From positions 6,572,001-6,636,000 of the forward strand of contig OY754476.1 in assembly GCA_963575645.1 (NCBI GenBank): a stretch of DNA of 64,000 bases, in the 5' to 3' direction. The notes beneath the pieces were generated by a model. It searched no databases. It was given only the letters and a program-made list of their open reading frames with translations, and had not been told where the DNA came from. This DNA is from Xanthostigma xanthostigma. Its lineage: Eukaryota > Arthropoda > Insecta > Raphidioptera > Raphidiidae. How positions within the stretch are numbered: position 1 is the first letter of the stretch; each line of letters starts with the position of its first letter. Of the stretch, positions 23,625 through 44,152 are shown in pieces. The position numbers and the translations under genes were made by a program.

Positions 23625-23771
23625 GTTCAAAAACTAAAACCTGACTACTGAAAAGTATAAAACAAAAAAAAATATTTTCATCTGAGGATAGCCGTGGTCA
23701 TATGCCACCTATCCTAACAAAACATTACATTTTAACAGTAGTAAGCGATCATAAGCTCTAGGGCAAAGTGC
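23625..23771 (-). mobile_element. One half of a split miniature element
   Basis: It begins with the terminal repeat GTTCAAAAACTAAAACC seen at both ends of the intact copy at 61857-62102, and matches that copy's reverse complement as far as GCGATCATAAGCTCTAGGGC...GTGCATC. There the match stops exactly where direct repeat A starts. The remaining half is at 44032-44152, directly after direct repeat B. Confidence 0.8.
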
Positions 23772-23988
23772 ATCGAAGAATCTCGTTAGAGATTCTTTTC
23801 TGTGCTAAATGCCGACGTATCTCTAACGTATTCTTATACATTGATTTTGCCTAGCTCCCATATAACGCCGTGTATATGAGACCAGTTTCCAAGTTTTATA
23901 GTTCTGTGACCACGTGACTTTCATAGGACCGATTTTTCGTATCACCCATATATACTTCTGTACCACAATAACAGCTTGCACTGCGTGT

Positions 23989-24067
23989 GTGCCTGTGGAC
24001 TAACGGTTACGACGTTAGACTAGTAATAACACTAATACAGGGTCTCGGGTTCGATTCCCGCCGGCAT
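23989..24067 (+). ncRNA. tRNA(Ser)-like pol III unit in repeat A
   Basis: A 79-nt tRNA-like sequence. GTGCCTG and CCGGCAT can form an acceptor-type stem with one mismatch. The D-arm-like part is GGACTAACGGTTACGAC, and the B box GGGTTCGATTCCC at 24047-24059 is perfect. The anticodon arm is damaged and the variable region is long, as in tRNA-Ser or tRNA-Leu. A run of ten T, a pol III terminator, follows at 24077. It is better read as a tRNA-derived promoter head than as a functional tRNA gene. Confidence 0.65.
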
Positions 24068-24631
24068 CATTGGAAATTTTTTTTTTCTACTCCATTTTAT
24101 TTCCACTTGATATTTATATAATATAATCATATTTTTTATTTTTTTTTTAATTTTAATTTTTTTTTTATATTTTTAATTGTTTTTTTTATTTTTAATTTAT
24201 TTTCTCAATTTTTTTCTCATATACATATTTTTATTTCTTTTTTAATTTTTATATTTTTTTTTCTTGTTTTTTGAAAAATACACTTTCGTCAAATTTTTTA
24301 TTAAAAAATAACAAAATATATGATTGAAGTTAGATTTAAATAATTTAATTTATTAAAAAACATATTTATCATAAAAAGTGCAACAAAAATTAAAAAGAGG
24401 AAAGTTTTCAAAGTGAAACTTCTTTTTTAATGCAAAATAAGTATTTTACAAATGATATGAAAAAATTTTTGTATTTTTAATGGTTGGTCTTGTTCATTGA
24501 TTTTTTTTCATGCCTTCAAAATTGGCCTTCATGGAATCTGTGGCCTCTTAATTCTAAAAATGCACATATGTTTATTTTTTGGAGAAAAAATAAAAATAAT
24601 GTCTCACACTTTGGAAAAAGACGTGAAATCT

Positions 24632-25182
24632 TAAAAAAAAAACTTCGGAGAAGTAAAAACTTCGTTCTGTGCTAAATTCAAAAACTTGAGGCGACTGAAT
24701 CTCAGAATTATAACTTAAAAAAAAAAGAATTTCGAGGCAGACAAGAAATTGAAATCAAGCTCGAAATTCTGTGCCTAAGACGTCGAAAAAAAAAAGAATT
24801 TTGAGGCAGACAAGGAATTGAAATCCAACTTCGAAATTTTGTGCTTATAAAAGCTACAAGAGCAACAGCAAAAAAAAGTGCACAGACGGCGTTTTTTTAG
24901 TGGTAACTAAAGGAGTTATGCGAACACCGTCTTTGCATTTTTTTGCTGTTGCTCTTGTAGCTTTTATAAGCACACAATTTCGAAGTTGGATTTCAATTCC
25001 TTGTCTGCCTCAAAATTCTTTTTTTTTTTCGACGTCTTAGGCACAGAATTTCGAGCTTAATTTCAATTTATTGTCTGCCTCGAAATTCTTTTTTTTTTAA
25101 GTTATAATTCTGAGATTCAGTCGCCTCAAGTTTTTGAATTTAGCACAGAACGAAGTTTTTACTTCTCCGAAGTTTTTTTTTT
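24632..25182. repeat. Foldback part of repeat A
   Basis: The arm beginning AAACTTCGGAGAAGTAAAAA at 24640 is mirrored to 25182 with a centre near 24905. Within each arm the segment AATTTCGAGGCAGACAAG occurs twice in slightly different forms, so the arms contain an internal duplication. The palindrome is nearly perfect over about 260 bp per side. Confidence 0.88.
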
Positions 25183-26600
25183 ATATACTATACTATAATA
25201 TTTTCGAGCAACGGTGCACATAGTAGCTGAACTCTGTTCCACACCACCCCAGGTAGAGGTCGAGCTCAAGGCGCGTTTTTTTAACGTGGTTTCCCCGGTA
25301 GGCCTAATCCACTTGTCGGCGGCAACTAGCTAATATGCCGATGTTCGCGAACTCTGCTATTTACACTGTTTCTCGAAAATAAACATTCAACATACCAAAT
25401 TCTAGATTTTTCCTCGCAGTGTAAGTTTGGTAATAAACATGTTTTCCCGCACGTGTTACTCATTCAGAGAAAATTGAGAAAACCCATTTGTTGCGACTCA
25501 TTTTCAACTTTGGTTTAAAATGCCGTATCTATTTTTTTTGTAGAGCCAATAGAAGCTGAGATATTAAATAAAAAAAATAAGATCCGACCTCGTTCATCAT
25601 ACATATTAATCGGACTAACAAAGCGATGCAAATTGTTTAAAACTTAATGTTTATAGAAATTTTGGTTACGTTTCTCGAATCTTGGAAGAATTTTTAGTTT
25701 AATTTTTAATACCGATATCTTCATTTATCACGTAGTAATTGGATAAACTTTTCTTTTATTGTATGTAAAGAAATTTTTCATTAAAACACTGTAAAATAAT
25801 AAAATTCGAGTACATATAAATATAAAATTCGACTGGTTTATCAATCGAAAAACTAAATTTTAGCTCAATAATAGAGCCAAATAATATTACGAAAAAATGA
25901 TTAGTAATTAGTAAACATTCTAATCAATTTTATGCCTTGCGCCCCCAAGAGACAGTCTCACAGTGTTTTAAACTACAACTGCGAGTTGTACCCGGAGGAG
26001 ATTTTACATAATACCAAAAATCATGCACAGTGTGGGATCAGGGTTTTTTTCGGGCCCATAGGAGGGCCCACAGGGAATTGACGCGCGCGATTCATCTGCA
26101 GAAAATGCGACGACCACTTTGGTTATAATAAACGACGTACCTAAAACAAGCCTACGAATTTAAAAACTGATTTGACTTGCAACATTAAACTATATATTAG
26201 AATTAAAAAATATATACAACCTACCAAGAACATGTAGCTACATTTAAAATAAACAAACTTTATCAAAACAGAAGTTAAAAAAAGCAATAAACTAACTTTT
26301 AAATATGTATGCAAAAAATATTAATGAAATTCATTCTATAAGCAAAAAAATCGCGACATTAAAAATCAAAATCTTTAAAAAGGTCGTTGGAACAGAGGAC
26401 GATGGCTTGTCCCTCCGTTCGGCTGAAAAAAAGGCTGAAGGAGAAATTGAGATATCGTAATCGATCATAAATAATTTGGAAACTAGTTTTTACCTACTAT
26501 TTACTGATGACTTAGTAGCATATTTATAGGCCCATCAATAAGCTACTACATCGTATTGTCAATTAGTGAAAAAAAATGATTCTCATTGAAATATTACAAC
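25183..26600. other. No supported gene
   Basis: A GC-richer patch at 25200-25370 and another at 25970-26120 break the AT-rich background. Neither shows a coding or RNA signature that I recognise. Confidence 0.4.
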
Positions 26601-27400
26601 AAAGCCGAAATATTATTTGAAAGTTTTCTTAATAAGAGAACCACTGATAAAAAATTTATTTCTCCTTCAGTTGGGTCAGGCAACAATTTGTCCACCTACC
26701 ACCGTTGGAACTCCCGTTGCGAGAGAGTCCTTTAGGAAATCAGAATTCCCTGGCGTTTTTGCTTTAACACCAAAACATTCATACAGAAGAACACATGGAA
26801 CACACGGACAGAAAGGATAAAAGGTAAAGGAATTAAAGGTACCCTACCGAGCCCATAAGTAAGAACATTCACACTTGTCGGGCCCCTAAAACAGAGGATG
26901 GCCGGGTTAGGAATTTTTTATCACTGAATATGGTTGGATAGAGCACACCTTGTTGTCTATCACCGCTGGTATAGTTGGGCAGAGGACTTGAACTGTCGCT
27001 CCACCTTTGTTGGAACCCCCGCACTGAAGGGGTCCGTCACGGTCTCACGGAGGAATCGGTTTGTTGTAGTGTGTGTATAGTGTTCACTTTAATGATCGAG
27101 CTCTACTCGGACCACCTCCGCCCCTGGATCAACTATGGCTGTTGCTTACATGACCCAAGGCCTCCTACTTACGCGAGCCAGTGGTCCAACCCTAGGTCCT
27201 GTCCTAGAGATACCTACAAACCGCGCAAGGACCTTGTGCGTTCAAAAAACCAGCTAAGCTAACGCGAAAGCTGCGATGGTCTCACAAGAATGGGGAACTA
27301 TGCTAACGAGACCGGATACCGAACCCTACAGAGCAGCCCGCAACGCACACTGACTGCTTCCCAAAACCCCTAGACGCGCCCCAGTGTAATTTTTGGTGAT
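26601..27400. other. GC-richer island, probable decayed retroelement
   Basis: Base composition changes sharply here, with motifs such as GGAACCCCCGCACTGAAGGG and CTCACGGAGGAATCGG. Two plus-strand frames (26617-26820 and 26975-27262, 67 and 95 codons) lie inside, but neither has a recognisable domain. The composition resembles the untranslated or N-terminal region of an insect non-LTR retrotransposon. I cannot name the family. Confidence 0.35.
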
Positions 27401-27417
27401 ACTAAATATTTCAAAGG

Positions 27418-27464
27418 GAACGTATTTTCAATATCTCAAACACAGAAATATTGAAAATATGTTC
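27418..27464. repeat. Perfect hairpin, 17-bp arms
   Basis: GAACGTATTTTCAATAT at 27418-27434 is mirrored by ATATTGAAAATATGTTC at 27448-27464 around a 13-base loop. Confidence 0.75.
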
Positions 27465-29696
27465 GGACGCAAAAAGGTCTATACTAAAACATTGCAAATT
27501 TCAACATTGAAAGACAATACTGATGGTAGTTGTGAATGTTTCACGTGATTAAGAAATGTCGAAGTTTGCATTGCGTTAAAATTATACAGAAAAATACCTG
27601 AAAAAAAAATGTCACGGAGACCCTATCTGAAATTTAACGCGTCGCGAAAGATAGAAGAGGAACGATGGATCCCAATATAATTACCACAACCAAAAAATCT
27701 GCAGTCTGAGTTGTTCCAGTCAATAGAAAACATCCTTTCAAGTTAATCGAAGTTTATTTATTAAAGAATTTCTATTGGCTAGAAGCTCAAGATCACAGAA
27801 AAATTTTTAAAAACTCACCAAAGCAGATTCATTACAAGTTGATATCTGAAACAAAAGACACATTTTCTGTTAATTTGCATTCCATTATTTACATAAAAAA
27901 ATAGTAAAGGCGTTTTACACCAGGTGGGACCGAATTCAATTTCTTTTTCGGGAATCAGTTCAGGAGAGCGTACTGATTATGAAAACATATGTTACCAGGC
28001 GGAAATCTGGTCTGATATTGTCTAAAACAATTATTTATAACAATAAGAAGAAAAATTTCAATCAACAATATTTTTTTTATTTTTTGGCCTTTTTTCAAAG
28101 GGAAATGACCAAAACTTTTTTCGTAAAGTTAATACTTTTAATGGTATTAATTTTTTAAAAGTTGAAAAAATGCCAATTTCCCGCTTCTTTTTTTTTGAAG
28201 AAATGGTAACAAAAATTATCGATAATTAATCAACGTGTTAGCACTGAAAAAAAGACAGATAAGTACATATAATTCACCAAAGCAAAATGACAAGTCAAGC
28301 CATTTATTCGTGGCAAGCCTAAATCCACAAAATTATACACGACCCCTCTCCCACACCAACACAGCTATCATTCTCATCAGCGGGTGTAGGCTACTATAAA
28401 ATTTTATTAACGAATGTATTACCCGAAATAATAAAAAATTAACCTCTTTCCCTTTAAAAAAGATTACGTAGTTTTATATTATATTAATGTTTTTTTTCAA
28501 AAAAATAGTAGAATATGCTGCGTTGGTACTTTTAAATGTGCAATTTTGAAATTATTTGTTTAAAAAAAAATAAAATGCATTTCTTATCAATCAATAATGA
28601 TAACAGCATCAATTGTATACAAAATTTAATCTTTTAAAAAAATTTGTGGATAAAAAACAATGAAGTATTGCTTCGACATTTGCAGATTTATCAAATGCCT
28701 TGTTAAAGGAAAGCAATACAAATCAAGAAAATATTGTAATACATACCAACTTGTGAAGAATGACGAATCTCTGTAAGGCCCTGGATCCTGTTTTGCACAC
28801 GAGTTGAAAGTCGCGCACTGACTATACTGTTACTTTATTGATTATTTAGACACTGCACTGGAGTCTCTGTTTTATTATATCAATTTATTTAAATACATAA
28901 CGAGTTAAAAGTCGCGAATTCTTATTAAATTTTTATTTTTAACACTGTCACTCGACTGGTCGATGGTGATCCCTTCAATCTGGTTGGCCGTGTCGTTGTC
29001 CTGTAGATTCTAGTGGCAGCAGAAAGATTATTCGGTTTAATGATTTGAATTTTTATTTAAACACTTACTCGCGCGAACACGGAGCCGGGGGACGAATCAA
29101 CCCGCAGCGTCGTCTTGGAAGAAAAATGTGAGTGCTACAGGTCAATACCAAAATTATTCGTGTTTACACGATGTAAAATGTTGTGCACTGTTTAAATTTA
29201 ATATAAGCATTCTACCTTAAGACAACACTGTCTCGACTCAACCGAAAACGTAGGCACTCCCGCACATTCTGAAACACGAGAGCCAGTAACCGACGCCACG
29301 CACTACCGACTCAAAAAGCGAAAAACGGAAATATTTTATTAGTACACAAAATATTTTTCATGTTATTGTAATTTTAATGTTAAAAAAAGGTTTTCGACAG
29401 ATTTTACCTTTTCGACTTTCGAGACACTTTCATTTTTACTGAATTTAATGTGGGTTCCCTTCAGAGGAAAGGGAACGTCTGATACCAACCTCCGTTCTGG
29501 TTGACCCCCATTCTGATAATGTCGCAAGGAGGATTAACCCCATTGTGACTCTATCGATTGGAGGGACCACCCCTCTGTATCAGCCTGACCTCACCAAAAG
29601 TGTAAAACTAACAAACATTGAAAGAATACCCTCAAACGAGTGTCTATACAAAAACAAATTAATTTCGTCAAAATACTGAACATTTGAGGGTTACAT
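27465..29696. other. No supported gene; patches of higher GC
   Basis: AT-rich to about 28760. At 28780-29310 and 29440-29600 GC-richer blocks contain GCGCACTGACTATACTG, GAGCCGGGGGACGAATCAAC and a small hairpin GTTCCCTTCAGAGGAAAGGGAA. These could be a promoter/leader of a host gene or a retroelement LTR. There is no frame to support either reading. Confidence 0.35.
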
Positions 29697-31990
29697 TCTA
29701 CAAAGAACTGCCAGGGCGGCATTTTTGTTTTAAATAGTGTCAAACAACAATTTTAATTTTCAATTTTGACTTTCATTAGAAAATTATCAAAACAGTGAAA
29801 AGGAAAGAACACTTTAAAGCGACATTCTATTGACCGTTGCCTCCATATTATTACGCCTACCATCACAGCCAGTCTCGCCCGAACAGGATACAGGGGAGCT
29901 TTAGCAATATATGGGTGTCGCCGGAGGTTGAAGTATAGAATGATCCAGCGATCTAGTGTCTCCCTAAACCGTTTGCACCATAAATAGTCAATGAAAAACG
30001 AATTATTTGGAGTTGGATCACACTTCGTTTTAATTTTATTTTGTATTGCATGCCGACACTTTTTTATTTTACCAGCTCGGCTATTCATGTGTAAAATGTA
30101 TAGTGTAGTTTTACATTACTTTATTACTCTAATTTTTATATAAACCAATTAAAAAAAATCGCAGATCACTTCATTGTTACCATTTACTTAACCTAACAAC
30201 CGATGATCGTAGTTCCAATTTTAGTTTTAATACTGCCTGTCATCTGCATTTTTCATGTCATTGTAATTTTACTGCAAGGATGTTCAACAAAGAGCAGCCG
30301 GCGGCATTTTTGTTTTAAATAGTGTCAAACAGCAATTTTAATTTTCAATTTTGACTTTCATTAGAAAATTATCAAAACAGTGAAAAGGAAAGAACACTTT
30401 AAAGCGACATTCTATTGACCGTTGCCTCCATATTATTACGCCTACCATCACAGCCAGTCTCGCCCGAACAGGATACAGGGGAGCTTTAGCAATATATGGG
30501 TGTCGCCGGAGGTTGAAGTATAGAATGATCCAGCGATTTAGTGTCTTCCTAAACCGTTTGCACCATAAATAGTCAATGAAAAACGAATTATTTGGAGTTG
30601 GATCACACTTCGTTTTAATTTTATCTTGAATTGCATGTCGACACTTTTTTATTTTACCAGCTCGGCTATTCATGTGTAAAATGTATAGTGTAGTTTTACA
30701 TTACTTTATTACTCTAATTTTTATATAAACCAATTTAAAAAAATCGCAGATCACTTCATTGTTACCATTTACTTAACCTAACAACCGATGATCGTAGTTC
30801 CAATTGTAGTTTTAGTACTGCCTGTCATCTGCATTTTTCATGTCATTGTAATTTTACTGCAAGGATGTTCGACAAAGAGCAGCCGGCGGCATTTTTGTTT
30901 TAAATAGTGTCAAACAGCAATTTTAGTTTTCAATTTTGACTTTCATTAGAAAATTATCAAAACAGTGAAAAGGAAAGAACACTTTAAAGCGACATTCTAT
31001 TGACCGTTGCCTCCATATTATTACGCCTACCATCACAGCCAGTCTCGCCCGAACAGGATACAGGGGAGCTTTAGCAATATATGGGTGTCGCCGGAGGTTG
31101 AAGTATAGAATGATCCAGCGATCTAGTGTCTCCCTAAACCGTTTGCACCATAAATAGTCAATGAAAAACGAATTATTTGGAGTTGGATCACACTTCGTTT
31201 TAATTTTATTTTGTATTGCATGCCGACACTTTTTTATTTTACCAGCTCGGCTATTCATGTGTAAAATGTATAGTGTAGTTTTACATTACTTTATTACTCT
31301 AATTTTTATATAAACCAATTAAAAAAAATCGCAGATCACTTCATTGTTACCATTTACTTAACCTAACAACCGATGATCGTAGTTCCAATTGTAGTTTTAA
31401 TACTGCCTGTCATCTGCATTTTTCATGTCATTGTAATTTTACTGCAAGGATGTTCAACAAAGAGCAGCCGGCGGCATTTTTGTTTTAAATAGTGTCAAAC
31501 AGCAATTTTAATTTTCAATTTTGACTTTCATTAGAAAATTATCAAAACAGTGAAAAGGAAAGAACACTTTAAAGCGACATTCTATTGACCGTTGCCTCCA
31601 TATTATTACGCCTACCATCACAGCCAGTCTCGCCCGAACAGGATACAGGGGAGCTTTAGCAATATATGGGTGTCGCCGGAGGTTGAAGTATAGAATGATC
31701 CAGCGATCTAGTGTCTCCCTAAACCGTTTGCACCATAAATAGTCAATGAAAAACGAATTATTTGGAGTTGGATCACACTTCGTTTTAATTTTATTTTGTA
31801 TTGCATGCCGACACTTTTTTATTTTACCAGCTCGGCTATTCATGTGTAAAATGTATAGTGTAGTTTTACATTACTTTATTACTCTAATTTTTATATAAAC
31901 CAATTTTAAAAAATTGCAGATCACTTCATTGTTACCATTTACTTAACCTAACAACCGATGATCGTAGTTACAATTGCAGTTACAATACGC
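29697..31990. repeat. 585-bp tandem repeat, about 3.9 units
   Basis: Equivalent points recur exactly every 585 bp (29753, 30338, 30923, 31508). Each unit carries the same 111-codon minus-strand frame (29753-30088, 30338-30673, 30923-31258 and 31508-31843). The predicted proteins of units 1, 3 and 4 are identical; unit 2 differs at three residues. The unit is 195 codons long, so one frame can stay in register across units. Within the frame unit 2 differs from unit 1 at five bases: three change the residue and two do not. That is what neutral drift gives, so coding is not supported. The protein is basic, with no domain I recognise. Similarity decays at both array edges. Confidence 0.93.
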
Positions 31991-33708
31991 AGCTATTTAT
32001 TCGTAAAATGAATGCCTAATGAATTTAGACCTGCTTTCAATGCCAAAAAATAAAAATATTTGCAGGTCATTTCACTCTAATCTCTGCAATTTAAGTTCGC
32101 AGTATCAAATCGTAGTCCAATCACACATATGGCATAGATGCTAATAATTTCAGCTGTCGAGTGCCTATAATTTCTCTAACTCCTCTCATTTCGGTCCATT
32201 GTGCGTATTTTAGGTCGAATTAGCTAGCGTCGTCCAGTCCCACGATGCCTGAAACAAAAAGCAAAAAAACATTAAAATACCAATCACAACGATGCTAAAG
32301 CGGCACCGCAAGAAAAGAAGTGTAAGTTGGGCCAAAATCACGCTTCACTCCTCACAATGCCGCGTTTTCAGTTTTAAGGCGCTGAAAATTCGCCCTCACC
32401 CTTTTTTACTTTAAAAGGATTTGCTGGCAGAGCTGACTAATTTTCAGTAGACATTACCTAGGATTTGTAGGGCATGTCTATAATAGACAACAATAAATTC
32501 CCTCTAGGGTCCGTACCAGCCTTCCCCCTCCTCCTTTTGTGAAAACCTGGGCTTGGGACCGGCTTAGGCGGAGTTAGGTACATTGAAATTATAACAAGTG
32601 TATTTCAGATTCATTTTTTTGATATCGGAATATCAATAATGTCATAATTTGAGAACTATTAGCGCTGCAAAAGATTAAATCCCGTTAACGAAGACTTTAA
32701 AATTGGATTAGATTCAAAGTTAAAAAGTACGGTATTTTCAAATAGTTGCAATAATATGTTTATTAATAAATGATAGTAAATATAATAAAGGCGTGTAAAT
32801 AATATTAAGTTTTCACGTTGCTTTAGTAGCACATCGTAGCGTTATACAAAGCACGAAAGGTGTGTATTTTAAACTAACATAGTAATCAAATATTTTTAAA
32901 TTGTTGCATTTTGTTTGAAAATTGAACTTGCATTTTCATAGCGGTCCGTTGCTAGTAACAAGATAGCACGATTTTTAAATAACGTTCCAAAATCATTGAA
33001 ATCCGATATCAAAGTAACTCTTTTATTTAATAATAATAATTTGTTTAATAATTTGTCTACTTACCTTTCATTCAATAAACGCATAACAATAACTTATTTT
33101 TGGTTTTCGTCATTACAAGTGAAATGAAAAAAAGTCGATTAGTCTCTAGTCAGACCTATCAGTATCACCGGTTAAAGTCGTACAGAAGGTTTACTGGTCA
33201 CCTGTACACACATATTTTATGTCTATGGCTAATCATGCAATTGGGCTTTTGAATGAAATTTTTTTTTGTCATAAATGGAAAGATCGTATATAAGTTTTAT
33301 AACAAAACTATTTTTCTTTTTTTTATTTTCGTTATAATTCAAAAGTTATATCAAATTAAAAATAAATTTTTGTACCCAGTTCCGAGAACGCGCCGACATT
33401 TCCCGAACATAATGTGACGTCATAATGTTTTAGTCAATTGTAGAAGCCATTGATAGTATACTGCGTATATACATTTTACCATTATGACGTCACAACTGTC
33501 AAAAACAATTTTAGTGCGTTTGCAGTCACGTGATTTTTTTTAATATTTTATCAATTTTAAATTGCTTATAATAAATTTAAAAAAAGTTTTTTGAAAGTTT
33601 TTCGCATCGATTATCAATATTATTTATAATAAAGTTTTAAAATACAATAAGAAAATCGATAATTTTTTTTTTTTCAAAAGCCTAATTGCGATTTTCGTGC
33701 TATATGCA
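31991..33708. other. No supported gene
   Basis: Mostly AT-rich. A segment at 33380-33530 has two facing TGACGTCATAATG/ATTATGACGTCA motifs, suggesting a worn miniature inverted-repeat element. A GC-richer patch at 32360-32580 is unassigned. Confidence 0.4.
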
Positions 33709-34048: not shown

Positions 34049-34092
34049 CATTTATGTGCGGAGCTATTATAAAAGTGATACAAAACGTCATA

Positions 34093-34199
34093 TATATGTT
34101 ACCGGCCAAACCCGATTTCAGGACAAACTAGTTCAGCCTAGGCCAAACTGGTTTGTAGAACTAGTTTGGCCTAAAATCGGGTTTGGCCGGTAACATATA
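34093..34199. mobile_element. 107-bp hairpin miniature element
   Basis: TATGTTACCGGCCAAACCCG at the left is mirrored by CGGGTTTGGCCGGTAACATA at the right. The arms continue inward through AAACTAGTT/AACTAGTTT to a centre with CAGCCTAGGCC. Nearly the whole length can fold into one stem. Confidence 0.8.
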
Positions 34200-34757
34200 C
34201 AAAAAACACAATAATATTATGGTGACATCAAATCATTTAGATTGTAGATCATAATGCACAGATTGTAAAAAGTAATGCTTTAGATTTTTTTATAATCGAA
34301 ACTTTTTGCTTGGATATTGTCACTGCAGCATGCACTTTATTATATGGTGCTGGAATCGATGACTCTATGTAAGTTAAAAAAAAAAAAATTTTTACATGTT
34401 ATTTGAATGTAAATCTTTAATCGCGTTTTTCTCGAAACAACGGTTTTGAAATCGGTGGTCACGATTTCTCGAAAAATTATGAACCGATCTCTTTGAAATT
34501 TTGCACACTTCTTCAAAATAACATTATCTCGTGCTTGAACGAAGGATTTTTTTTTCTATTTTAAGTGATTTTTCAAGGCCATGAAAGGTGCAAATTTTAC
34601 TCAAAAAAAGGGTTTTTTTGTTCTCAACGCCGCCAAAAACGCAATTTTATTTATTTTTTTCCTTTGTCCAAGCACAAGCTTAGCATCTACTAACAGAAAA
34701 TTTTTGGTTTTTACATTTCTGATGAATCTGTCATGAGTTATCCTGACCACGCCGATA
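34200..34757. other. No gene seen
   Basis: AT-rich. The sequence from 34430 contains the kind of low-information repeat text (GAACCGATCTCTTTGAAATT) common in arthropod interspersed repeats. Confidence 0.4.
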
Positions 34758-34765
34758 GCACTTTT

Positions 34766-36073
34766 GGGTCCAGTACGATAACACTATGCACCCAAATTTT
34801 GAAATTTTTTTTTTTAAGTCATAGAAAACGCTAAATTTTGACGTTCAAAAAAAAAAACTTTGCGGATTATTCACAAATTTCCTCAAAAATACGTGAAAAA
34901 AATGGAACTACTTTTCGTCTTTCACTGTCATTTTTTGAATCTAACCAATCAAAAATCACAAATACACGTCATAGCAACTGGTGTAGAATTATTGTGTAAC
35001 TGTCACTTTGTTTGCAGCTTTCGATTGTGTTATGGAAGCAGGGTCGTATTTAGATATTTATAATATTTGTTATGCTATATTTGCTTAACTTTTCAGTATA
35101 GTTTATTCTTCGATATTCAACACTACGAAAACATCTGAACACTTCACAGAATGAGCATAGGTATTTTTCGCGAATTTTTAGACGCACAAACCCTCTATTG
35201 CTATCGGACAGTAAAAGAAATCATTTCCTTTTGAAACACATTTTTTTTCATTACTTTTTTTTCTGATTTTCTAAAAAACATATATTTAATTGACTATCAA
35301 TTAAATATACATTTTTGAGAAAACGCAGTTCTATTCAAACAATTAACTATCTAATTCGCATACCCCGTTATCGTTCACCCCGGAATTGTTTTTTTAAAAA
35401 CTCAACATTTGCCCCTTCCCGTTTCACTGCGAGACAATTCGCATACCCCTTTATCGTTCACCCCAGAATTACAATTCGCATACCCGTTTATCGTTCACCC
35501 CGGAATTGTTTTTTTAAAAACTCCACATTTGCCCTTTCCCGTTTCACTGCGAGAAAATTCGCATACCCGTTTATCGTTCACCTCAGAATTACAATTCGCA
35601 TACCCGTTTATCGTTCACTCCGGAATTGTTTTTTTAAAAACTCCACATTTGCCCCTTCCCGTTTCACTGCGAGACAATTCGCATACCCCTTTATCAAAAA
35701 AAGCGGTGGTTTTCAATCTTCATGAAAATGTGAGTTTTAAATTTAAAATTCGTTTTATAAATTAAAATTTCCAAATACGACTCTGCCCTGAACGTTCAAT
35801 TGTATTTCATTCCAACCAATTGATATTTCTATCTTTGTTTATCATAGATACAGGTATATAACTTTCTCTTTTCTTATCACTATATGAGACAAGATAGCGA
35901 TCGCTATATACTCTAAAATCAACTTACTATACCATATTTAATTTTTTTAAATTAATTTTTAAAAATTAATTTTCCGCACTTAAAACGACCAATAACGCTG
36001 TTATATGTTATATAAAACAATAATTGTGAATTTCCAGTGGATATTTTGCATAGCAAGTTATCGTACTCTTACC
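34766..36073 (+). mobile_element. Non-autonomous DNA transposon with internal 120-bp repeats, copy 1
   Basis: The left end is GGGTCCAGTACGATAAC and the right end is the inverse of GGTAAGAGTACGATAAC. The flanks carry an 8-bp target duplication GCACTTTT (34758-34765 and 36074-36081). Terminal repeats are short and imperfect, sharing AGTNCGATAAC. The interior holds three 120-bp tandem units. Compared with copy 2 (48143-49163, opposite orientation) about 300 bp at 35058-35357 is extra here, starting after TTTAGAT and ending at ATCTAA. An 8-bp duplication fits hAT or P-type transposons, but the termini do not match a family I know. No transposase is encoded. Confidence 0.85.
35354..35698. repeat. 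120-bp tandem repeat, three units (copy 1)
   Basis: The motif ATTCGCATACCC...TTATCGTTCACC recurs at exact 120-bp steps, with TTTCACTGCGAGA in each unit. The period is a multiple of three, so long open frames (35315-35725 and 35409-35765) appear in more than one frame. Two overlapping open frames over the same repeat argue against coding. Confidence 0.92.
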
Positions 36074-36081
36074 GCACTTTT

Positions 36082-37728
36082 TTTTTAAGGGGTTACAGGA
36101 AACGACGTGTCCACGCCTTAATTTTCAATATTTTTTAATGAAAATTTCACAAACTACTTATGAAATATATACTTTTTATATGGTAAATTGATGGAATGAA
36201 ATATTTTGTTGGTTAAATAAAAAAAAATTCGTAAAAATGTACCTGTTTTGAGCCTTTGAAACCCACTTAATCCCTTAAAACAAGTTCGATAACACGTTGT
36301 TGCCCTGCTGATTTGAGTCACCAAACATCATATTCCTGTGGACCCCACATTGCTGTAGCAGATCACTAGGGCTGGATCTTTGACCTGTCCTCCAGTCTTC
36401 TGTTCATCGTTTAGATGACAACTTGTCACCGTGCGGGCGGGATCTTCTTAATTCTGCTACTCAGGCTTGAACCCCGTAAGCCTCCATCTGAAATTAAAAA
36501 AAAAATAATAATAAAAAATCCTGTAGTAAAAAAAACAATACAAAATAGTGATGGGTCGATTGTCTGTAATTTCGGTTTCTTACGTAGTTTGAGCTATTTG
36601 GTATGACAAACAAGAATAAGTGGTTTTAGATTTTTTGTCTGTTTGTACCTACCAGTATTACTCGAGATTAGCTGAAATGATTTTTATGAAACTTGGTACA
36701 ATATTTACACGACCTTAAACTTAAAATATAGGATGTTTACGAATTTCCGGTTAGATAAGAATCTTCATATAAAACTGACGCTAATGAGAACAACGCCGCG
36801 GGTGCAGGCTAGTATAAAAATGCATAGCTCCAGTCCATAGGACCACGTTAAGTAACTTAAAATAACATACATTTTTTTAAATATTATTTCCATATAAAAC
36901 CAGGAAACGATATAGTATTTTAAATTATACAAATCTATGTTTATGTTATGCATTTTTCATTTGAACGAAAAAAAAAACACAAAAGTGGTTTAAAATAGCT
37001 CACCATGCTAACTGTCAAATTTGTAGCGAAGTCATTTGCTTATAAAACGTGAAAAAAATATGATTTCACATAAAATATTTATATCAAAATAATCTAAAAC
37101 ACTTCTAGAAACTGATTATCATAATCTTTAATATTATTTAGAAAATTTTACTGCTTAATTTTGTATTTTGTGATTTCGAAAATAGCGAAGCGTCTGAAAA
37201 CAAAAACGTGCTCTCTCTTGTCTGCTGCACTAGCCGTGCGTCATAGTCATTGCCTAGCCTACTATGTTAGATAATGCAGGTCGATGCGTTGCGAATATTT
37301 TTCAAAAATATATAAAGCTATTTATACGAAGCTATTTATGCAATGAGAATTGTATATATTATTATTTTATAATTAATAATTAATACATTTTTTGACGTTT
37401 TTAATACATATACAGTGTGAGACAAGGAGCTTGTACTAAAGGGAAGTGGTCCGCTGTCTGATAAATTTAAGGGAGATACGCTCGGAATATTATATGTAGG
37501 TAGCTACTTTTATATCTCTTTTATCCACGAAAATTGTGCTGCATTAATATAATCCACTTTATCTCTTGTTTTCAAAGTGCAAGCAATATTTCTTGCGTTG
37601 AAATTAATTGAGTTTCCTTTCATATACAATCCTTCAACTACGATTTACTGCGCAGTCTAGTAACTATTATCAAATAAGGTATAGAACGTGCAACTCTGAT
37701 CCATATAATACGCAACACTAAGGGCTAG
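36082..37728. other. No supported gene
   Basis: AT-rich. A 63-codon frame at 36415-36606 follows a GC-richer patch (36280-36490) that I cannot assign. Confidence 0.4.
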
Positions 37729-37731
37729 CTC

Positions 37732-38348
37732 ACATGAAGAGCGTTAATCGCGCATTGACATTTATACCACTGTTCACATGGTTACCGATTATACGCGTTA
37801 AGAGCGCGTTTATTTTATAGTTTATACGCTAGTTGAGTGTTGTATTCTGTCAAAGATGGCCGTTGCAGATGCAATCTGTTTATGGATGCTATATCGAAGA
37901 AGACAGCGTCATAGAAAAAATCGAAAATATTGGGTTCATCCTATTTTACAAAATAGAGTTATCTCAAGCTTGTACATTACACTTTATCCGAGTCTAAGGA
38001 ATTATGAACCTAAATTTTTCAACTACTATTTCGTCGATGAATAGATCATAGTCAAATTCTTCTCCATCCATTTTTTATTTTAAGGAAAACTTTTTAGAAA
38101 AAATAATCGAAAATATTGGACAGCAGGAACCTATCGCTTCAAATCGCGCGTTGCATCTGAACACATCAATGCTAATCAATGTTTAGTTAGACATGATCTA
38201 AGCGCGCGTTGACGCGCGTAGACAGGGTATTTGAGTTATCGTGGCGTTGAACGCGCGTTATCATATAAACAGTTATATGCAATTGTATTGAAATTGTAAA
38301 CGCGCGTTTGGCTAACGCGCGCTTAACGCCTCTCATGTAAACCTAGCC
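37732..38348 (+). mobile_element. PIF/Harbinger transposon relic with TAA target duplication
   Basis: The left end GGGCTAGCTCACATGA is approximately mirrored by TCATGTAAACCTAGCC at the right end. The flanks are TAA on both sides (37729-37731 and 38349-38351), the 3-bp duplication typical of PIF/Harbinger. Many GCGCGTT/AACGCGC motifs lie near the ends, which may be transposase-binding sites. At 617 bp it is an internally deleted copy that keeps the start of its transposase gene. Confidence 0.88.
37856..38044 (+). pseudogene. Harbinger transposase, N-terminal 62 residues
   Basis: The frame begins MAVADAICLWMLYRRRQR, continues with KYWVHPILQNR and ends with EPKFFNYYF, followed by VDE and a stop. 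The WVHPIL...LYPSLRNYEPKFFNYYF pattern is the conserved N-terminus of PIF/Harbinger transposases and of the host protein HARBI1. In a complete protein of roughly 350 residues it precedes the DDE nuclease domain that cuts and joins DNA. Here the frame ends right after FNYYF and none of the catalytic region remains. The start ATG is believable because it is where family members begin and it lies about 120 bp inside the terminal repeat. It is a remnant within a deleted element and not a working gene. Confidence 0.85.
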
Positions 38349-38351
38349 TAA

Positions 38352-39418
38352 TTCAGCGCTAGAGGTCTGGATTTGCTGACCAGCATATTTATTTATTCCC
38401 AAAATATTAGCTAATCCTTTACACAAATATCACAATTGTTGACCACCAGTTCTTTGACAATAAATATGATAAATATTTAATACAACTCTGTTCATATTGT
38501 AAACTGTTTAACTTGAGGATAAACTTAAAAAAACAAGGTGTGGATTGTATAACAGACAACGCCTTAACTATTTCGAAGAACGGATTAAGAAAAATGTCAG
38601 CATTACAACATTTGTACGGAAAATATTGTTTTGGTGTGTCCACAGCAAGCAACAATGGCCTAGTAGTCAGTCGTAATTGGTATCGTACGCGTAGGTCCAA
38701 TTCCAAACCACTATTAGTGTTTAGCGTTGTATATTTATGTGAAAAATTACCATAATCGTGTGATTGATACAATAAGCTCTCACTTGGCAAAAGAGGCCAA
38801 GACGATTTTAAACAAACCTATGCCTACTTATTTGGCTTGTCAATAAAGAATCGTAGATATGTCAAGTACTACTCAACGATACCAGATAAACTATGTCACA
38901 AAATCGAGATTTAGGCACAAATTTACATATTTAAAAAGAAAACTTAGGTCTGAACATATTAAAAAAGATATACTTACAGAAGTAGTGTCAAAAATTACGC
39001 GTGTCGTTCCAATCGAAATTAGTAGAAAATCGGGACGTTAACTCTGATACTATTTCATGATTTGAAAAGATACTATGCTTTTACGGTCTCTCATAATGTG
39101 ATGGTGTAATAATCGTTTATTGTTAAACATCTAGGTCAAGTTGTTATTTTCAATAATCATTCCTTCATTTAGAATATATTTTCCGAATAGCTCAAAACAC
39201 GAAGAACAGTCGCGACTGGCGGGGAATTACTGTATATGAAAAAGATATGCCGCGGGTTCCCGAGGCGATCTTCTAATATTGGGTTATTTAGCAATACAAG
39301 ACTTCAAACAAAATGCACCGCGGTAGCGACAGACGAACTACTCTTGATCTGTTACAAATTATTCAAACAGTAATATTGTTTAGAAACAACATGGGCGTCA
39401 ATGTGGAAATGTTTTTTT
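38352..39418. other. Unassigned sequence with open frames on both strands
   Basis: A 123-codon minus frame (38419-38790) and an 80-codon plus frame (38513-38755) overlap. A further 60-codon plus frame lies at 38859-39041 and is rich in Lys and Arg. No domain is recognised in any of them. The stretch follows the Harbinger relic but lies outside its target duplication. Confidence 0.35.
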
Positions 39419-39746
39419 CTTCATACCTCGATCGAAAGTACATACTTTCGGTATCAATTGCAAGGCAGAAAATCTAACATTTACGCATTGGTGTGATTAC
39501 ACTCACTTATGCGGGAAGTACGCACGTTCGGGCGGCAGTAATGAAAAAATCACTTATCAACTGTTGCTGAGATGTCGTTTCCATAGCAACCCTATTACAT
39601 TTTAGCTAATAGTCGCGAACAACTGTCATTCGTGTTTTTGCGTATGCCCTCAAAGCTGCTTGCTTTGAATTTATCTGTGTTTTTATGTAATTAATAACTA
39701 ATTAATTAATGTATTTAATAAGCGTACTTACGATCGAGGTATGAAG
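39419..39746. mobile_element. Miniature element, ends CTTCATACCTCGATCG
   Basis: CTTCATACCTCGATCG at 39419-39434, followed by AAAGTAC, is mirrored by GTACTTACGATCGAGG...ATGAAG ending at 39746. Length is 328 bp, with no coding frame. Confidence 0.72.
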
Positions 39747-39759
39747 ACAAACTGTGTAC

Positions 39760-39848
39760 ACCACACTGGCCGAAAGTTTGATATCGCGTTGCACTAGGAG
39801 TCATGATGCCCGAGGCGAGAAGAATATCAAACTTTCGGCCCTTGTGGG
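39760..39848. repeat. Foldback repeat, about 25-bp arms
   Basis: CCACACTGGCCGAAAGTTTG, followed by ATAT, is mirrored by ATAT and CAAACTTTCGGCCCTTGTGG. The centre carries TCATGATGCCCGAGG; a similar GATGCCCGAGG occurs alone near 42281. Confidence 0.75.
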
Positions 39849-39948
39849 GTAATATACTAATTATCATCGAAAAGTCGATTTCAATTTCGAAAAACCATTG
39901 ACGTAATGGTGTTTAGGGATCATCCATAAGTTGTGTCACTCTTTGAGG

Positions 39949-40420
39949 AACGTTCTTCTTTTTGTTGTATTACAATATGAAGCTCAGATGACAGATCGAA
40001 GAAATATTTTACTAAAATTATCATATAGAGGCGCAAGTAGCAAAAGCGTTGAGCTAAGCCAGATGGCATCATGCAGCATTGCTGTGACGTTGTTCAGCGT
40101 TGCTCGCTGTTTCACAATTAAAACCGTCAGATGGCAGTATGCAGTATTGTGTCTGTTGTATTACAATATGAAGGTCAGATGACAGATCGAAGTGTTGACG
40201 TTGTTTCAAAATTAAAGTCGTTAGATGGCAGACGTTGTTCAGCGTTGCTGTATTTTAATTAATTTACAAAAACAAAAGCAATAATACATTTTTTAGTTGT
40301 CGATGTCAGTAGAGCAAGCAATTATCTGTAAAATGATATATAATTTATGTGGAGAAATTGTGAGGTTTTTTCTAAAAAGGGAGGCAAACATCTTTAACCT
40401 TAGCTTATTAATATATATGA
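39949..40420 (-). mobile_element. Helitron copy, 3' end lost
   Basis: Reverse-strand relative of the Helitron at 12521-12986. Its 5' terminus, TCATATATATTAATAAGC on the minus strand, ends at 40420. The match stops near 39949, so the 3' hairpin and CTAG are missing. The internal block with CAGATGGCAG and GTCAGATGACAG motifs is expanded relative to the complete copy. The frame 39931-40182 is inside it and is not a gene. Confidence 0.82.
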
Positions 40421-41862
40421 TTTATTGATGTCTCAAATACCTTTCGTTGGAACACGATTAGCATTTACAATGTTTTGTTACAAATATATTCGCGGTGTAA
40501 ACAGAGTTCATGCAACGACACTGTTTAACCGTCAACTCAAACTTGGAACCTGCTGTTTAGTTCGATCATAAATTGTTTTATGCCTCATAACTTGTAATGG
40601 CACCTTTTCTACGCGTGATCAACTACCGTGAACTTCTATAATTTATAATTTTATATTTTACCATAAATCTAAATTTTTGACACGCCTTTTTATATATTTC
40701 ATATAGAAAAACAGTGTTAATATATGTATTTTCAAATTCAACGAATATTTTATAAGTGGCTGTTAAAGGAGCTAATTTAATTAGATAACCACAAATCGAT
40801 AGATAGATAATTTGTTTTTTTTACAATTAAAAACAATTAGTTAGACTTGTTATACATAAAAATCGTGAATGTTTTTAGTATTATATTTATATGTAAATAT
40901 AAGATTGTAAATCTTGAATGAAAGTCTAGCAAACGTCAGTGGCGGGTTATTTAAAGTAAACAAAAATGTTAATAATGACGGAGTTTACACAATTCACTTT
41001 TTTTCACTTTGCGTGGCTTAATACAAAAAAATGCATATTTAAAAATTATCGATTATTTTGCTGCGCATTTAAAGAACTCGCTCTACCCTGGCATTCCGCC
41101 ATTGCAAGACAAAGAATTTTTTCAGAATGAATGAGAAAACTGTAGAATTTAGATTATTCTGTTTCTGTATCAAATTCACAAGAATTTTTATACGTGTGCG
41201 CTGTAATAAATTTTGAATGAAAGATGATTCAAAACAATTTTCATTCATAAATTCACCGAAAAATGTACATAAATGACAGCTCTCGTTTTTTTTTGTGTAC
41301 GATAATTTTTGAGACTTTTGCAAGTTCATTGTTCGCATATTTTAGGCTTGCATACAATTGACCCTGAAAATTATACATAATTTATAAATAATAAAATACA
41401 TACAAGTTTTTATAGCACCTTGACACTGAACTATTTTAAATTTTTGTATTGCAGATAAGAAATTTATGATTGTCTAAAACAATAATTTAGTGATTTATGT
41501 GCTCTGTTATGTCGCAATGAATTTGACATTAGATAAAATATGAATTTTAACAAGAAATTTTTATTTTTTTTGTAACCTGCATATTATGCATATCTATATG
41601 TTGAATGGCTAATGATAGAAAGCAGGAAAAATTTCGTTAAATTCGAGCGTAAAAAGGGTCAACGTGCCTCTTTTTTACCCGGCTGCAGTACACCAAGGAA
41701 GGGGATATTGTGTTTGTCAGTCTACGGATGTGTGCATGTATGGATGTTAGGCTCTAGAGCTAGAACGAATAGAGTGATAGACCTAAAGGGACAAATAACT
41801 AATAAGGTGTCGTTAGCATAGTCTTGACTCTCCAAATGTCCTAGGATATTTATGATGTCACG
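40421..41862. other. No supported gene
   Basis: AT-rich. The frames at 41069-41338 (minus) and 41612-41821 (plus) have no recognisable domain. Confidence 0.45.
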
Positions 41863-42040
41863 AATATTTTAATATGGCGGTCAAGATTTGCCATATAGGC
41901 TATTTCCCAACGTGAAAAAAAAATAAAAATCCCATTGAAACGGGTAGACCTATACTTATAGGTCTACCCGTTTTCTAATTTGTTTTTTCACGTTGGGCAA
42001 TAGCCTATATGACGAATCTTGACCACCATATTAAAATATT
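41863..42040. mobile_element. 178-bp hairpin miniature element
   Basis: AATATTTTAATATGG at 41863 is mirrored by CCATATTAAAATATT ending at 42040. The arms continue inward through CAAGATT, ATATAGGCTATT, AACGTGAAAAA and CGGGTAGACCTATA to a 2-4 base centre near 41955. Virtually the whole element is one long stem. Confidence 0.87.
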
Positions 42041-42606
42041 AATAATGATAGTTAAAATATCCGCACGCTTCATTCAAAAAAGTTGCTTCACAACTAAAAA
42101 TCGTAAAGTAAAAGAACAAAAAAGTCGACTGTAGTAAAAAGATATTATCCTATGTTTTAATGTTTTTCAGTAGTAAGATGTTGCCATAGAAACAAAAACA
42201 ATGTTTCAGTGTAATAAATACTCACTATATTATATTATGTGAATTATTTTCATTGCGTATATATATACATTTTCATTTGATGCCCGAGGGCAAACCTAAT
42301 AATTATTATGTCAATGTAATCTGATTTGAATATAAATGTTTCAATCACATTTATCTTGTTTATATGATAAACCATGTGCATATTTATGTACATACATATT
42401 TAATTATTCTTTTTTACATAGGTAAAACAATATACTATAGTCGATATAAATATACAGTTGTTTCTCTCTATATATATATAATATATATATATAATATATA
42501 TATATACGCATCATTGCGTCTTAGGTCTTAGGCCCAGCGTAGACATCCTACTTGTTTTTGTTTTATTAACGAACACAAAAAAAAACTAAAGGTACATCGT
42601 CCATCT
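42041..42606. other. No gene; simple repeats
   Basis: AT-rich, including the (TA)n tract at 42468-42508. Confidence 0.5.
42468..42508. repeat. (TA)n microsatellite
   Basis: About 40 bases of nearly uninterrupted TA. Confidence 0.9.
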
Positions 42607-42823
42607 ATCGAAGAATCTCGTTAGAGATTCTTTTCTGTGCTAAATGCCGACGTATCTCTAACGTATTCTTATACATTGATTTTGCCTAGCTCCCATATAA
42701 CGCCGTGTATATGAGACGAGTTTCCAAGTTTTATAGTTCTGTGACCACGTGACTTTCATAGGACCGATTTTTCGTATCACCCATATATACTTCTGTACCA
42801 CAATAACAGCTTATACTACGAGG

Positions 42824-42903
42824 GTGCCCGTGGACGAGTGGTTACGACGTTAGACTAGTAATAACACTAATAACAGGGTCTCGGGTTCGATTCCCAGCAG
42901 CAT
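42824..42903 (+). ncRNA. tRNA(Ser)-like pol III unit in repeat B
   Basis: The D-arm region reads GGACGAGTGGTTACGAC, closer to a true tRNA-Ser D-arm than copy A. The B box GGGTTCGATTCCC at 42883-42895 is intact, and a T-run follows at 42915. The 3' acceptor side CAGCAGCAT pairs less well with the 5' side than in copy A. The anticodon region is the same damaged form. Confidence 0.65.
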
Positions 42904-43483
42904 CATTGGAAAAGTTTTTTTTTTCTACTCCATTTTATTTCCACTTGATATTTATATATAATCATATATTTTTTTTTAATTTTTAATTTTTTTTTAATTT
43001 TTAATTTTTTTACATTTTTCATTGTTTTTTTTATTTTTAATTTATTTTCTCAATTTTTTTCTCATATACCTACATATTTTTATTTCTTTTTTAATTTTTA
43101 ATTTTTTATTTTCTTGTTTTTTGAAAAATACACTTTCGTCAAATTTTTTATTAAAAAATAACAAAATATATGATTGAAGTTAGATTTAAATAATTTAATT
43201 TATTAAAAAACATATTTATCATATAAAGTGCAACAAAAATTAAAAAGTGGAAAGTTTTCAAAGTGAAACTTCTTTTTTTAATGCAAAAGAAGTATTTTAC
43301 AAATGATATGAAAAAAATTTTGTATTTTTAATGGTTGGCCTTGTTCATTGATTTTTTTTTCATGCCTTCAAAATTGGCCTTCATGGAATCTGTGGCCTCT
43401 TAATTCTAAAAATGCACATATGTTTATTTTTTGGAGAAAAAATAAAAATAATGTCTCACACTTTGGAAAAAGACGTGAAATCT

Positions 43484-44031
43484 TAAAAAAAAAACTTCGG
43501 AGAAGTAAAAACTTCGTTCTGTGCTAAATTCAAAAACTTGAGGCGACTGAATCTCAGAATTATAACTTAAAAAAAAAAGAATTTCGAGGCAGACAAGAAA
43601 TTAAAATCAAGCTCGAAATTCTGTGCCTAAGACGTCGAAAAAAAAATGAATTTCGAGGCAGACAAGGAATTGAAATCCAACTTCGAAATTCTGTGCTTAT
43701 AAAAGCTACAAAGCAACAGCAAAAAAAAGTGCACAGACGGCGTTTTTTTAGTGGTAACTAAAGGAGTTATGCGAACACCGTCTTTGCATTTTTTTTGCTG
43801 TTGCTTTGTAGCTTTTATAAGCACAGAATTTCGAAGTTGGATTTCAATTCCTTGTCTGCCTCGAAATTCATTTTTTTTCGACGTCTTAGGCACAGAATTT
43901 CGAGCTTGATTTCAATTTCTTGTCTGCCTCGAAATTCTTTTTTTTTTAAGTTATAATTCTGAGATTCAGTCGCCTCAAATTTTTGAATTTAGCACAGAAC
44001 GAAGTTTTTACTTCTCCGAAGTTTTTTTTTT
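43484..44031. repeat. Foldback part of repeat B
   Basis: A palindrome of about 540 bp centred near 43757, the counterpart of 24632-25182. The minus frame at 43627-43893 reads through one arm and is not a gene. Confidence 0.87.
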
Positions 44032-44152
44032 AAGATTATGCTATACATCCAGAGGGGCCTCATATATATGAGATGGCATACGACCACGGCTAACCTGAGA
44101 TGAGAATATTTTCTTGTTTCATACTTTTCAGTAGTCGGGTACAGTTTTTAAA
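44032..44152 (-). mobile_element. Other half of the split miniature element
   Basis: Starting ATTATGCTATACATCC, it matches the reverse complement of the intact copy at 61857-62102 from the point where 23625-23771 stops, through GGCATACGACCACGGCT, to the terminal repeat ending near 44152. Confidence 0.8.

What the first reader, a model, noticed from the sequence alone, without database searches (positions are those of the whole stretch)
23625..44152. 20.3-kb block bracketed by 1.4-kb direct repeats and sitting inside one miniature element
Repeats A (23772-25182) and B (42607-44031) have the same orientation and the same end points. Left of A lies one half of a miniature element; right of B lies exactly the other half, in the same orientation, with the break at the same base context as in the intact copy (61857-62102). 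The simplest reading is one insertion, or a duplication within one element, that now carries 17.4 kb between two copies. It resembles a giant composite or LTR-like unit, but no transposase or reverse transcriptase is visible inside. A 3-base ATC/ATT may be a target duplication.
Basis: partly seen in the sequence, partly recalled or inferred. Interest (0 to 1): 0.78.

Follow-up and report, generated by a model that had tools for sequence, protein, structure and literature searches.

The report
Young 20-kb composite jumping element
Two copies of a small jumping DNA element appear to move together as one 20-kb unit, carrying 17 kb of ordinary chromosome between them, and the same chromosome still holds a version of the carried piece without them.

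Summary
In detail: A and B are 95.4% identical direct repeats and the block splits one miniature element at one base. The 1.4-kb unit ("X") is a dispersed family (250 exact 5' ends), so A and B are X copies; yet the block is also one mobile unit. It was found at six sites, all on contig C13, with unrelated flanks and cargo 0.12-0.31% apart. Four of six run from the A end to the B end (one lacks 740 bp inside); the other two are deleted. All five readable pairs of outer ends obey the rule of solo X: A^T, no duplication, ATAC soon after. A seventh C13 locus holds the cargo without X, both X target sites empty.

Best reading: two X copies landed 17.4 kb apart; transposition then used A's 5' end, ignored A's 3' end and stopped at B's 3' end, as in Helitron end bypass. 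Unit movement is well supported. Rolling-circle machinery is inferred: X has TC, a 5' hairpin and A^T targets, but no CTRR, no significant 3' hairpin and no known partner. It is not LTR-like.

The parts
23625..23772 (.). Left half of the miniature TIR element that was the target; last base A
   Evidence: alignment to the intact copy 61857-62102; left base A in 28 of 28 X/giant insertions
23773..44035 (+). Composite mobile unit: X_A + cargo + X_B, inserted between A and T
   Evidence: same unit, whole or partly deleted, at five further C13 sites; paralogous empty site
23773..25183 (+). X_A, 1.41-kb non-autonomous element; starts TCGAAGAATC, ends T10+A (short form of the usual T10AAGA)
   Evidence: boundaries from solo copies and the empty site in L052
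23776..23797 (+). 5' terminal hairpin of X_A (9-bp stem, GTTA loop)
   Evidence: folds (0 of 300 shuffles as stable)
23798..23810 (+). 13-bp asymmetric inverted repeat TTCTGTGCTAAAT; partner at 25138-25150
   Evidence: 2 of 2000 shuffles of X_A ends reach 13 bp; the 13-bp pair is present in 17 of 20 solo copies with both ends, and in X_A and X_B
24632..25183 (+). 550-bp palindromic 3' domain of X_A with 69-bp sub-repeats
25152..25182 (+). 3' end region of X_A: two overlapping 5-bp stems (GAAGT-TTTT-ACTTC, the one predicted, and ACTTC-TCC-GAAGT), then T10; not more stable than chance
   Evidence: 35 of 300 shuffles as stable
25184..42607 (.). Cargo, 17,424 bp, no convincing gene; X-free version at C13 about 11.297-11.315 Mb
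29696..31988 (.). 585-bp tandem repeat in the cargo; copy number differs between giants (+0, +0, +1, +2, +2 units relative to the window)
33232..33690 (.). Member of a high-copy dispersed repeat inside the cargo (limits approximate)
   Evidence: partial matches on many contigs; 1497 first-look candidates, 40 scored
42608..44035 (+). X_B of the window, carrying the signature of another X subfamily (B1) than the B end of the other giants (B2); ends T10AAGA
44036..44152 (.). Right half of the miniature element; begins T, then ATAC after 6 bases
61857..62102 (.). Intact copy of the miniature element (paralogous empty site)

Best explanation
X is a high-copy non-autonomous transposon that inserts between A and T without target duplication, preferring A^T N5-6 ATAC. 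On contig C13 one X (A) inserted at one such site and another X at a site about 17.4 kb downstream, in the same orientation. A transposition event then used A's outer 5' end, ignored A's own 3' end, continued through the cargo and ended at the 3' end of the downstream X. The resulting A-cargo-B unit now sits at six sites on C13, one of them inside the miniature element of this window. The likely machinery is a Helitron-type rolling-circle (RepHel) transposase supplied in trans, and the event type is end bypass with termination at a downstream element. Shown: the six copies, the ends, the target rule, the empty sites, an X-free version of the cargo locus, and that A and B were different X copies. 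Inferred: that this X-free locus stands for the source, rolling-circle chemistry, identity of the transposase, and whether the B end arose once or more often.
For: (1) Six C13 sites begin at the same base with unrelated flanks. A probe near the right end (5 candidates, all scored) and a 25-base junction probe (up to 2 mismatches, whole count) are each found at exactly five places: four giants and the X-free locus. A mid-cargo probe matches over its full length at seven: six giants and that locus (40 of 1497 candidates scored). (2) Left base A in 28 of 28 insertions (22 solo X, 6 giants); right base T in 25 of 25 with a readable 3' end; ATAC follows in 23 of 25, after 5-6 bases in 21 and 8 in 2. 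A^T N5-6 ATAC occurs about once per kb on the + strand of this window. (3) Empty sites: the miniature element, matched along both sides; the X-free locus at X_A (AAAA^TATACTATAC) and at X_B (CATCTA^TTGCATATAC), no X remnant beside them; and, weaker, C4:45888455-45888483 for the 8.40-Mb giant. (4) A-A 0-0.4%, B2-B2 0.3-0.7%, A-B 2.1-4.2%, solo-solo 2.0% on average; cargo 0.12-0.31% between giants: the block spread as a unit, recently. (5) X starts with TC and has a significant 5' hairpin, a 13-bp asymmetric inverted repeat and a T-rich 3' end. The genome holds many open RepHel frames (89 matches; 44 in frames of at least 1,400 aa by my count). (6) End bypass to a downstream Helitron signal is a stated model (passages of PMC6431247, PMC4778049, PMC4067079).
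Against: X lacks the 3' CTRR of canonical Helitrons and the TT target of Helentrons, and its possible 3' hairpin is no better than chance (35 and 57 of 300 shuffles as stable for X_A and X_B). The 3' tail varies (AAGA, AAG, AA, A), unlike a fixed Helitron end. No autonomous partner was found: stretches beside two RepHel genes show no X ends. The window's B carries another X subfamily signature than the B of the other giants, and the B junction lies at two positions 13 bp apart, so one event does not explain every copy. No locus with A and B still at the source was found. The C4 empty site matches only 13 AT-rich bases right of the junction and has a 48-bp difference 16 bases to its left; no empty site was found for the 7.78-Mb giant, and none was sought for 12.74 and 13.13 Mb.
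Confidence: 0.62

Rival explanations
1. Homologous recombination: a circle carrying cargo plus one X recombined into resident solo X copies, so that the X target signature at each site was made earlier by a solo X.
For: X is abundant. The window's B carries the signature of another X subfamily, as expected if the 3' part of B was a resident X in the miniature element. In about the first 210 bases of B no base is absent from the 20 solo copies compared, which leaves room for a crossover.
Against: At 7.78, 8.40 and 12.74 Mb both A (0-0.4%) and B (0.3-0.7%) match between sites, while solo copies differ by 2.0% on average; resident copies would differ from site to site. The 447-base B tail at 13.13 Mb is 0.9-1.3% from these and 5.1% from the window's B, and shares their extra 70-bp unit, though one solo copy is as close (0.8%).
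Confidence: 0.17
2. X is moved by an unrecognised non-Helitron mechanism that also inserts at A^T without duplication; the composite arises because that enzyme uses the outer ends of two X copies.
For: No CTRR, no significant 3' hairpin, variable A-rich 3' tail, unusual downstream ATAC preference, 550-bp terminal palindrome, no partner found.
Against: TC start, 5' hairpin, asymmetric inverted repeat, A^T and absence of duplication each occur in the Helitron1/Helitron2 range (passages of PMC5148889, PMC4067079).
Confidence: 0.13
3. Ordinary segmental duplication, or an assembly artefact, spread the 20-kb block.
For: All six copies lie on one 18.4-Mb contig; no read data could be examined.
Against: Copies start at the same base, have unrelated flanks, sit at the X target motif, lie in both orientations and carry their own indels; the window copy has a clear paralogous empty site.
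Confidence: 0.06
4. LTR retrotransposon or another element with terminal direct repeats copied from one template.
For: Direct 1.4-kb terminal repeats; no other support.
Against: A and B of one copy differ by 2-4% while A copies at different sites differ by 0-0.4%. No target duplication. X also exists alone, with its own target rule. No RT or integrase match in the cargo.
Confidence: 0.01

Closest known systems
Helitron end bypass / 3' transduction (Helraiser, PMC4778049; 'downstream Helitron' signal, PMC6431247)
   Same: 5' end kept, own 3' terminator skipped, flanking host DNA carried to new A^T sites without duplication.
   Different: Here 17.4 kb is carried, the stop is the 3' end of a second full X copy, an X-free version of the cargo locus is still present, and the unit has multiplied to six copies. 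X lacks CTRR and a significant 3' hairpin.
Helitron2 / Helentron / HINE non-autonomous elements (PMC4067079, PMC5148889)
   Same: Asymmetric subterminal inverted repeats, 5' hairpin, T-rich 3' end, no target modification.
   Different: Target is A^T with ATAC downstream, not TT; the inverted repeat lies 25 nt from the 5' end, not 2-4; a 550-bp palindrome fills the 3' third.
Foldback-bounded composite TE of Drosophila (Ising TE; mentioned in a passage of PMC6431247)
   Same: Large host segment moved between two copies of a foldback (palindromic) element.
   Different: Far larger there. Foldback elements make target duplications (recalled); X does not.
Bacterial composite transposons and ISCR/IS91 one-ended transposition (recalled)
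   Same: Two copies of one element mobilise what lies between, or one-ended read-through does.
   Different: Eukaryotic; no enzyme in the unit; bacterial-type transposases were not sought beyond the Pfam scan of the cargo.

Membership tests
Canonical Helitron (Helitron1) | Starts with TC | tested here: met
   TCGAAG at the start of all 28 insertions shown (22 of 22 printed)
Canonical Helitron (Helitron1) | Inserts between A and T, no target duplication | tested here: met
   empty sites (and, weaker, 67)
Canonical Helitron (Helitron1) | Hairpin about 10-12 nt from the 3' end | tested here: inconclusive
   two alternative 5-bp stems; the predicted one ends 18 nt (X_A) or 21 nt (X_B) from the end, the other 10 or 13 nt; stability not beyond chance
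Canonical Helitron (Helitron1) | Ends in CTRR | tested here: not met
   ends AAGA, AAG, AA or A after a T run
Canonical Helitron (Helitron1) | RepHel partner with the same ends | tested here: inconclusive
   RepHel frames abundant; stretches beside two examined, no X ends
Helitron2/Helentron/HINE | Asymmetric subterminal inverted repeats | tested here: met
   13-bp pair in 17 of 20 solo copies (L026 10 bp, L035 8 bp, L037 none) and in X_A and X_B; 2 of 2000 shuffles reach 13 bp
Helitron2/Helentron/HINE | Hairpins at the termini | tested here: inconclusive
   5' hairpin significant (0 of 300 shuffles), 3' not
Helitron2/Helentron/HINE | Insertion within TT / T-rich target | tested here: not met
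   left base A in 28 of 28
LTR retrotransposon | Two LTRs of one copy more alike than LTRs of different copies | tested here: not met
LTR retrotransposon | Short target duplication | tested here: not met
LTR retrotransposon | RT/integrase or relation to a coding relative | tested here: inconclusive
   no such Pfam match in the cargo; X itself was not scanned, and a non-autonomous form could lack them
tRNA-derived SINE | tRNA-like head at the 5' end, poly-A or LINE tail | tested here: not met
   a tRNA-like stretch lies about 220 nt inside X (read by eye, box consensus recalled); the end is T10AAGA; ARAGORN found no tRNA

The most novel reading that the evidence does not exclude
X belongs to an undescribed class of duplication-free transposons (TC start, T10AAGA end, 550-bp terminal palindrome, target A^T N5-6 ATAC) whose enzyme routinely mobilises whatever lies between two same-orientation copies. 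The 17.4-kb unit is then one example of a general 'any two X copies make a vehicle' mechanism that builds chromosome-specific large repeats on C13.
Probability: 0.17. Interest if true: 0.75.

Novelty: new variant of a known kind. Interest (0 to 1): 0.5.

Why it matters
Capture of host DNA between two neighbouring non-autonomous elements is a stated model for Helitrons. Here a version of the carried locus without elements, both original insertion sites, several near-identical daughter copies and an empty target survive in one assembly. That makes the order of events testable, and suggests that 17 kb of non-coding DNA, tandem arrays included, can become mobile without any gene of its own. It also offers a simple route by which one chromosome gains private repeats.

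Tried and rejected
LTR reading: rejected on A-B versus A-A divergence and lack of duplication. Target duplication ATC/ATT: rejected. Genes in the cargo: Pfam over all six frames (stops read as Q/W) gave CARME (E 5e-14, 52.7 bits), RICTOR_M (27.1 bits) and GM_CSF (25.1 bits). All three are above their curated whole-protein cut-offs, but each is a partial match inside the 585-bp tandem region, with no single stretch passing alone; I take them as sums over repeat units read through stops. The 120-aa frame of that repeat was not tested further, and X was not scanned. Rfam: 0 matches at gathering score in the window; ARAGORN: 0 tRNAs. Autonomous partner: 2 kb beside one RepHel gene and 1.5 kb on each side of a 2.5-kaa RepHel gene showed no X ends; one search gave only short AT-rich matches. 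Two loci similar to the cargo's left part, at 10.53 and 9.08 Mb: no X motif in about 1 kb at the expected start and 3 kb at the expected end. An X-X dimer on C3 was suspected from the spacing of two matches; the 600 bases read show foreign DNA inside X instead. Empty site of the 7.78-Mb giant: no match across the junction. The 11.81-Mb copy breaks off at the equivalent of 39686 and is followed by about 58 bp of other DNA and a 148-bp inverted copy of its left flank; unexplained. My first statement of a 3' hairpin did not survive a shuffle test; confidence in the rolling-circle reading was lowered from 0.66 to 0.62, and the non-Helitron rival (0.10 to 0.13) and the novel case (0.15 to 0.17) were raised. 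One search gives 4% between the X-free locus and the giants at the right end; that MAFFT figure seems to include stray misplaced bases, and BLAST over the same 0.7 kb has about 6 substitutions plus 41 gap positions in 703 columns. Papers: five full-text searches; in the listed rows (15, 15, 15, 12 and 10 of 74, 2558, 179, 73 and 68) nothing was recognisable as this element. Of five papers I saw passages only.
Full report
What the window is. The window is C13:6572001-6636000 of a 623-Mb, 28-contig assembly without a name. It is AT-rich, has one frame of 150 aa or more, which lies in a tandem repeat, and holds many repeats.

Observation. A and B are direct repeats of about 1.43 kb, 95.4% identical. 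The DNA left of A joined to the DNA right of B aligns along an intact miniature element elsewhere in the window (reverse complement of 61857-62102). The break lies at GCA^TCATGCTATAC. The supposed 3-base duplication disappears once the ends are placed: the element starts TC and ends AAGA, and the host bases are A on the left and T on the right.

X is a family. A 301-base probe from A gave 41 matches on 11 contigs (1440 first-look candidates, 40 scored). An exact 49-base X start occurs 250 times, its reversed control 0 times. I read 22 solo copies, all outside C13, out of those 41 matches; they are among the ones most like A. Every one is preceded by A (22 of 22). Of the 20 whose 3' end could be read, all are followed by T (two of them judged by eye) and 18 have ATAC after 5-8 further bases. 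With the six giants the counts are 28 of 28, 25 of 25 and 23 of 25. The 3' tail is AAGA in most, but AAG, AA or A in others.

The block is a unit. Five more places on C13 (11.81, 12.74, 13.13, 7.78 and 8.40 Mb) begin at the same base as A and continue through the cargo, most pieces at 98-99.6% identity to the window. Three of them and the window reach the 3' end of B; of these the 7.78-Mb copy lacks 740 bp inside and the 8.40-Mb copy has 452 bp more. The 13.13-Mb copy has lost about 4.8 kb inside but keeps the 3' end. The 11.81-Mb copy stops at the equivalent of 39686. A probe near the right end and a 25-base junction probe match at five places, four giants and one X-free locus, with no cap reached. 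A mid-cargo probe matches over its full length at seven, the six giants and that locus, among 40 scored of 1497 candidates. The flanks of the six sites are unrelated apart from scattered repeats (3 kb each side). Empty sites: the miniature element is clear. For the 8.40-Mb insertion a C4 locus matches 29 bases straight through the junction, but only 13 of them on the right, and with a 48-bp difference 16 bases to the left. For the 7.78-Mb insertion none was found.

The X-free locus. The extra C13 locus (about 11.297-11.315 Mb) has the cargo but no X. At the place of A it reads AAAA^TATACTATAC and at the place of B CATCTA^TTGCATATAC. Both fit the X target rule, and no trace of X lies beside them. 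Over the left 2.9 kb it differs from the giants by 0.55-0.75% substitutions, while giants differ from one another by 0.12-0.31% over the cargo (0.10-0.28% without the tandem array). At the right end it has about 6 substitutions but 41 gap positions over 0.7 kb, and two probes match it at 99% and 96%. Between these pieces its sequence was not read. It may be the source itself in a state or haplotype without X, or a close relative of the source.

History. A copies differ by 0-0.4%, B copies at 7.78, 8.40 and 12.74 Mb by 0.3-0.7%, and A from B by 2.1-4.2%; solo copies differ by 2.0% on average. A and B were therefore distinct X copies that spread together. Nine cargo sites are informative (columns next to gaps were skipped). 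Three lie outside the tandem array and are nested: the window and 11.81 Mb keep the base of the X-free locus at 26990, the other four share a change, and 8.40, 12.74 and 13.13 Mb share two more, at 26753 and (without an outgroup base) 38582. Six lie in the array, and some of them conflict with this order. The B end is not uniform. The window's B carries one X subfamily signature (4 exact places, 14 within one mismatch) and the others carry another (13 exact, three of them giants; 37 within one mismatch). In the window and 7.78 Mb, B follows CATCTA. In 8.40 and 12.74 Mb it follows 13 further bases of the X-free locus, at T^TATTCTATAC, the next target-like site. Two X insertions side by side at the source, with recombination between them giving the 7.78-Mb form, could explain this; so could later exchange with other X copies. 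I cannot choose between them.

Mechanism. The outer ends behave like the two ends of one X, so the machinery of X most likely moved the unit. It used the 5' end of A and the 3' end of B and ignored the two inner ends. This is what one-ended rolling-circle transposition does when its terminator is missed and the next one downstream is used; passages I read in PMC4778049, PMC6431247 and PMC4067079 describe this for Helitrons. A's own 3' tail is the shortest form (A instead of AAGA) in all six giants; that this weakened termination is a guess. X has a TC start, a significant 5' hairpin, a 13-bp asymmetric inverted repeat in 17 of 20 solo copies, a T run, an A^T target and no duplication, which lies between Helitron1 and Helitron2 as described in PMC5148889. 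But CTRR and the TT target are both absent and the 3' hairpin is not significant, so I do not file it as a member of either. The genome carries many RepHel genes; none was shown to share X ends.

Standing. Firm: the repeated unit, its ends, its target rule, the X-free locus. Likely: rolling-circle end bypass. Open: the enzyme, the B-end history, why all copies found are on C13, and the host, which no tool here names.

Noticed in passing
window 1-5344: Array of a 654-bp satellite (7 units, mostly near-identical) followed by an inverted unit.
   Followed up: no
window 34766-36073 and 48143-49163: Inverted pair about 97% alike, each with a 120-bp tandem repeat; one lies inside the mobile unit, the other outside it.
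   Followed up: no
window 9976-12210: Long palindrome-like element (outer arms about 99% complementary).
   Followed up: no
window 24632-25183 and 43479-44037: The 550-bp palindromic end of X has 69-bp sub-units; the B2 form carries an extra unit in one or both arms.
   Followed up: partly
window 23996-24058: tRNA-like stretch (A- and B-box-like motifs, recalled consensus) inside X; its A-box-like part looks closer to the consensus in the window's B.
   Followed up: partly
window 29696-31988: 585-bp tandem repeat with a 120-aa frame on the minus strand in each of four units; three partial Pfam matches fall here.
   Followed up: partly
G000 C16:25398, 49277, 74286; C2:24891614, 24918389, 24945246: RepHel transposase genes spaced about 24-27 kb apart in the same orientation, possible tandem Helitrons.
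   Followed up: no
G000 C13:11809001-11839000 (L015-L017): The truncated giant is followed by a 148-bp inverted copy of its own left flank, 98.6% alike.
   Followed up: partly
G000 C13: All six giants found lie between 6.6 and 13.2 Mb of an 18.4-Mb contig that is 3% of the assembly; local hopping or a poorly recombining chromosome could explain it.
   Followed up: no
G000 C3:18983301-18983900 (L064): An X copy apparently interrupted by about 1.47 kb of foreign DNA.
   Followed up: partly
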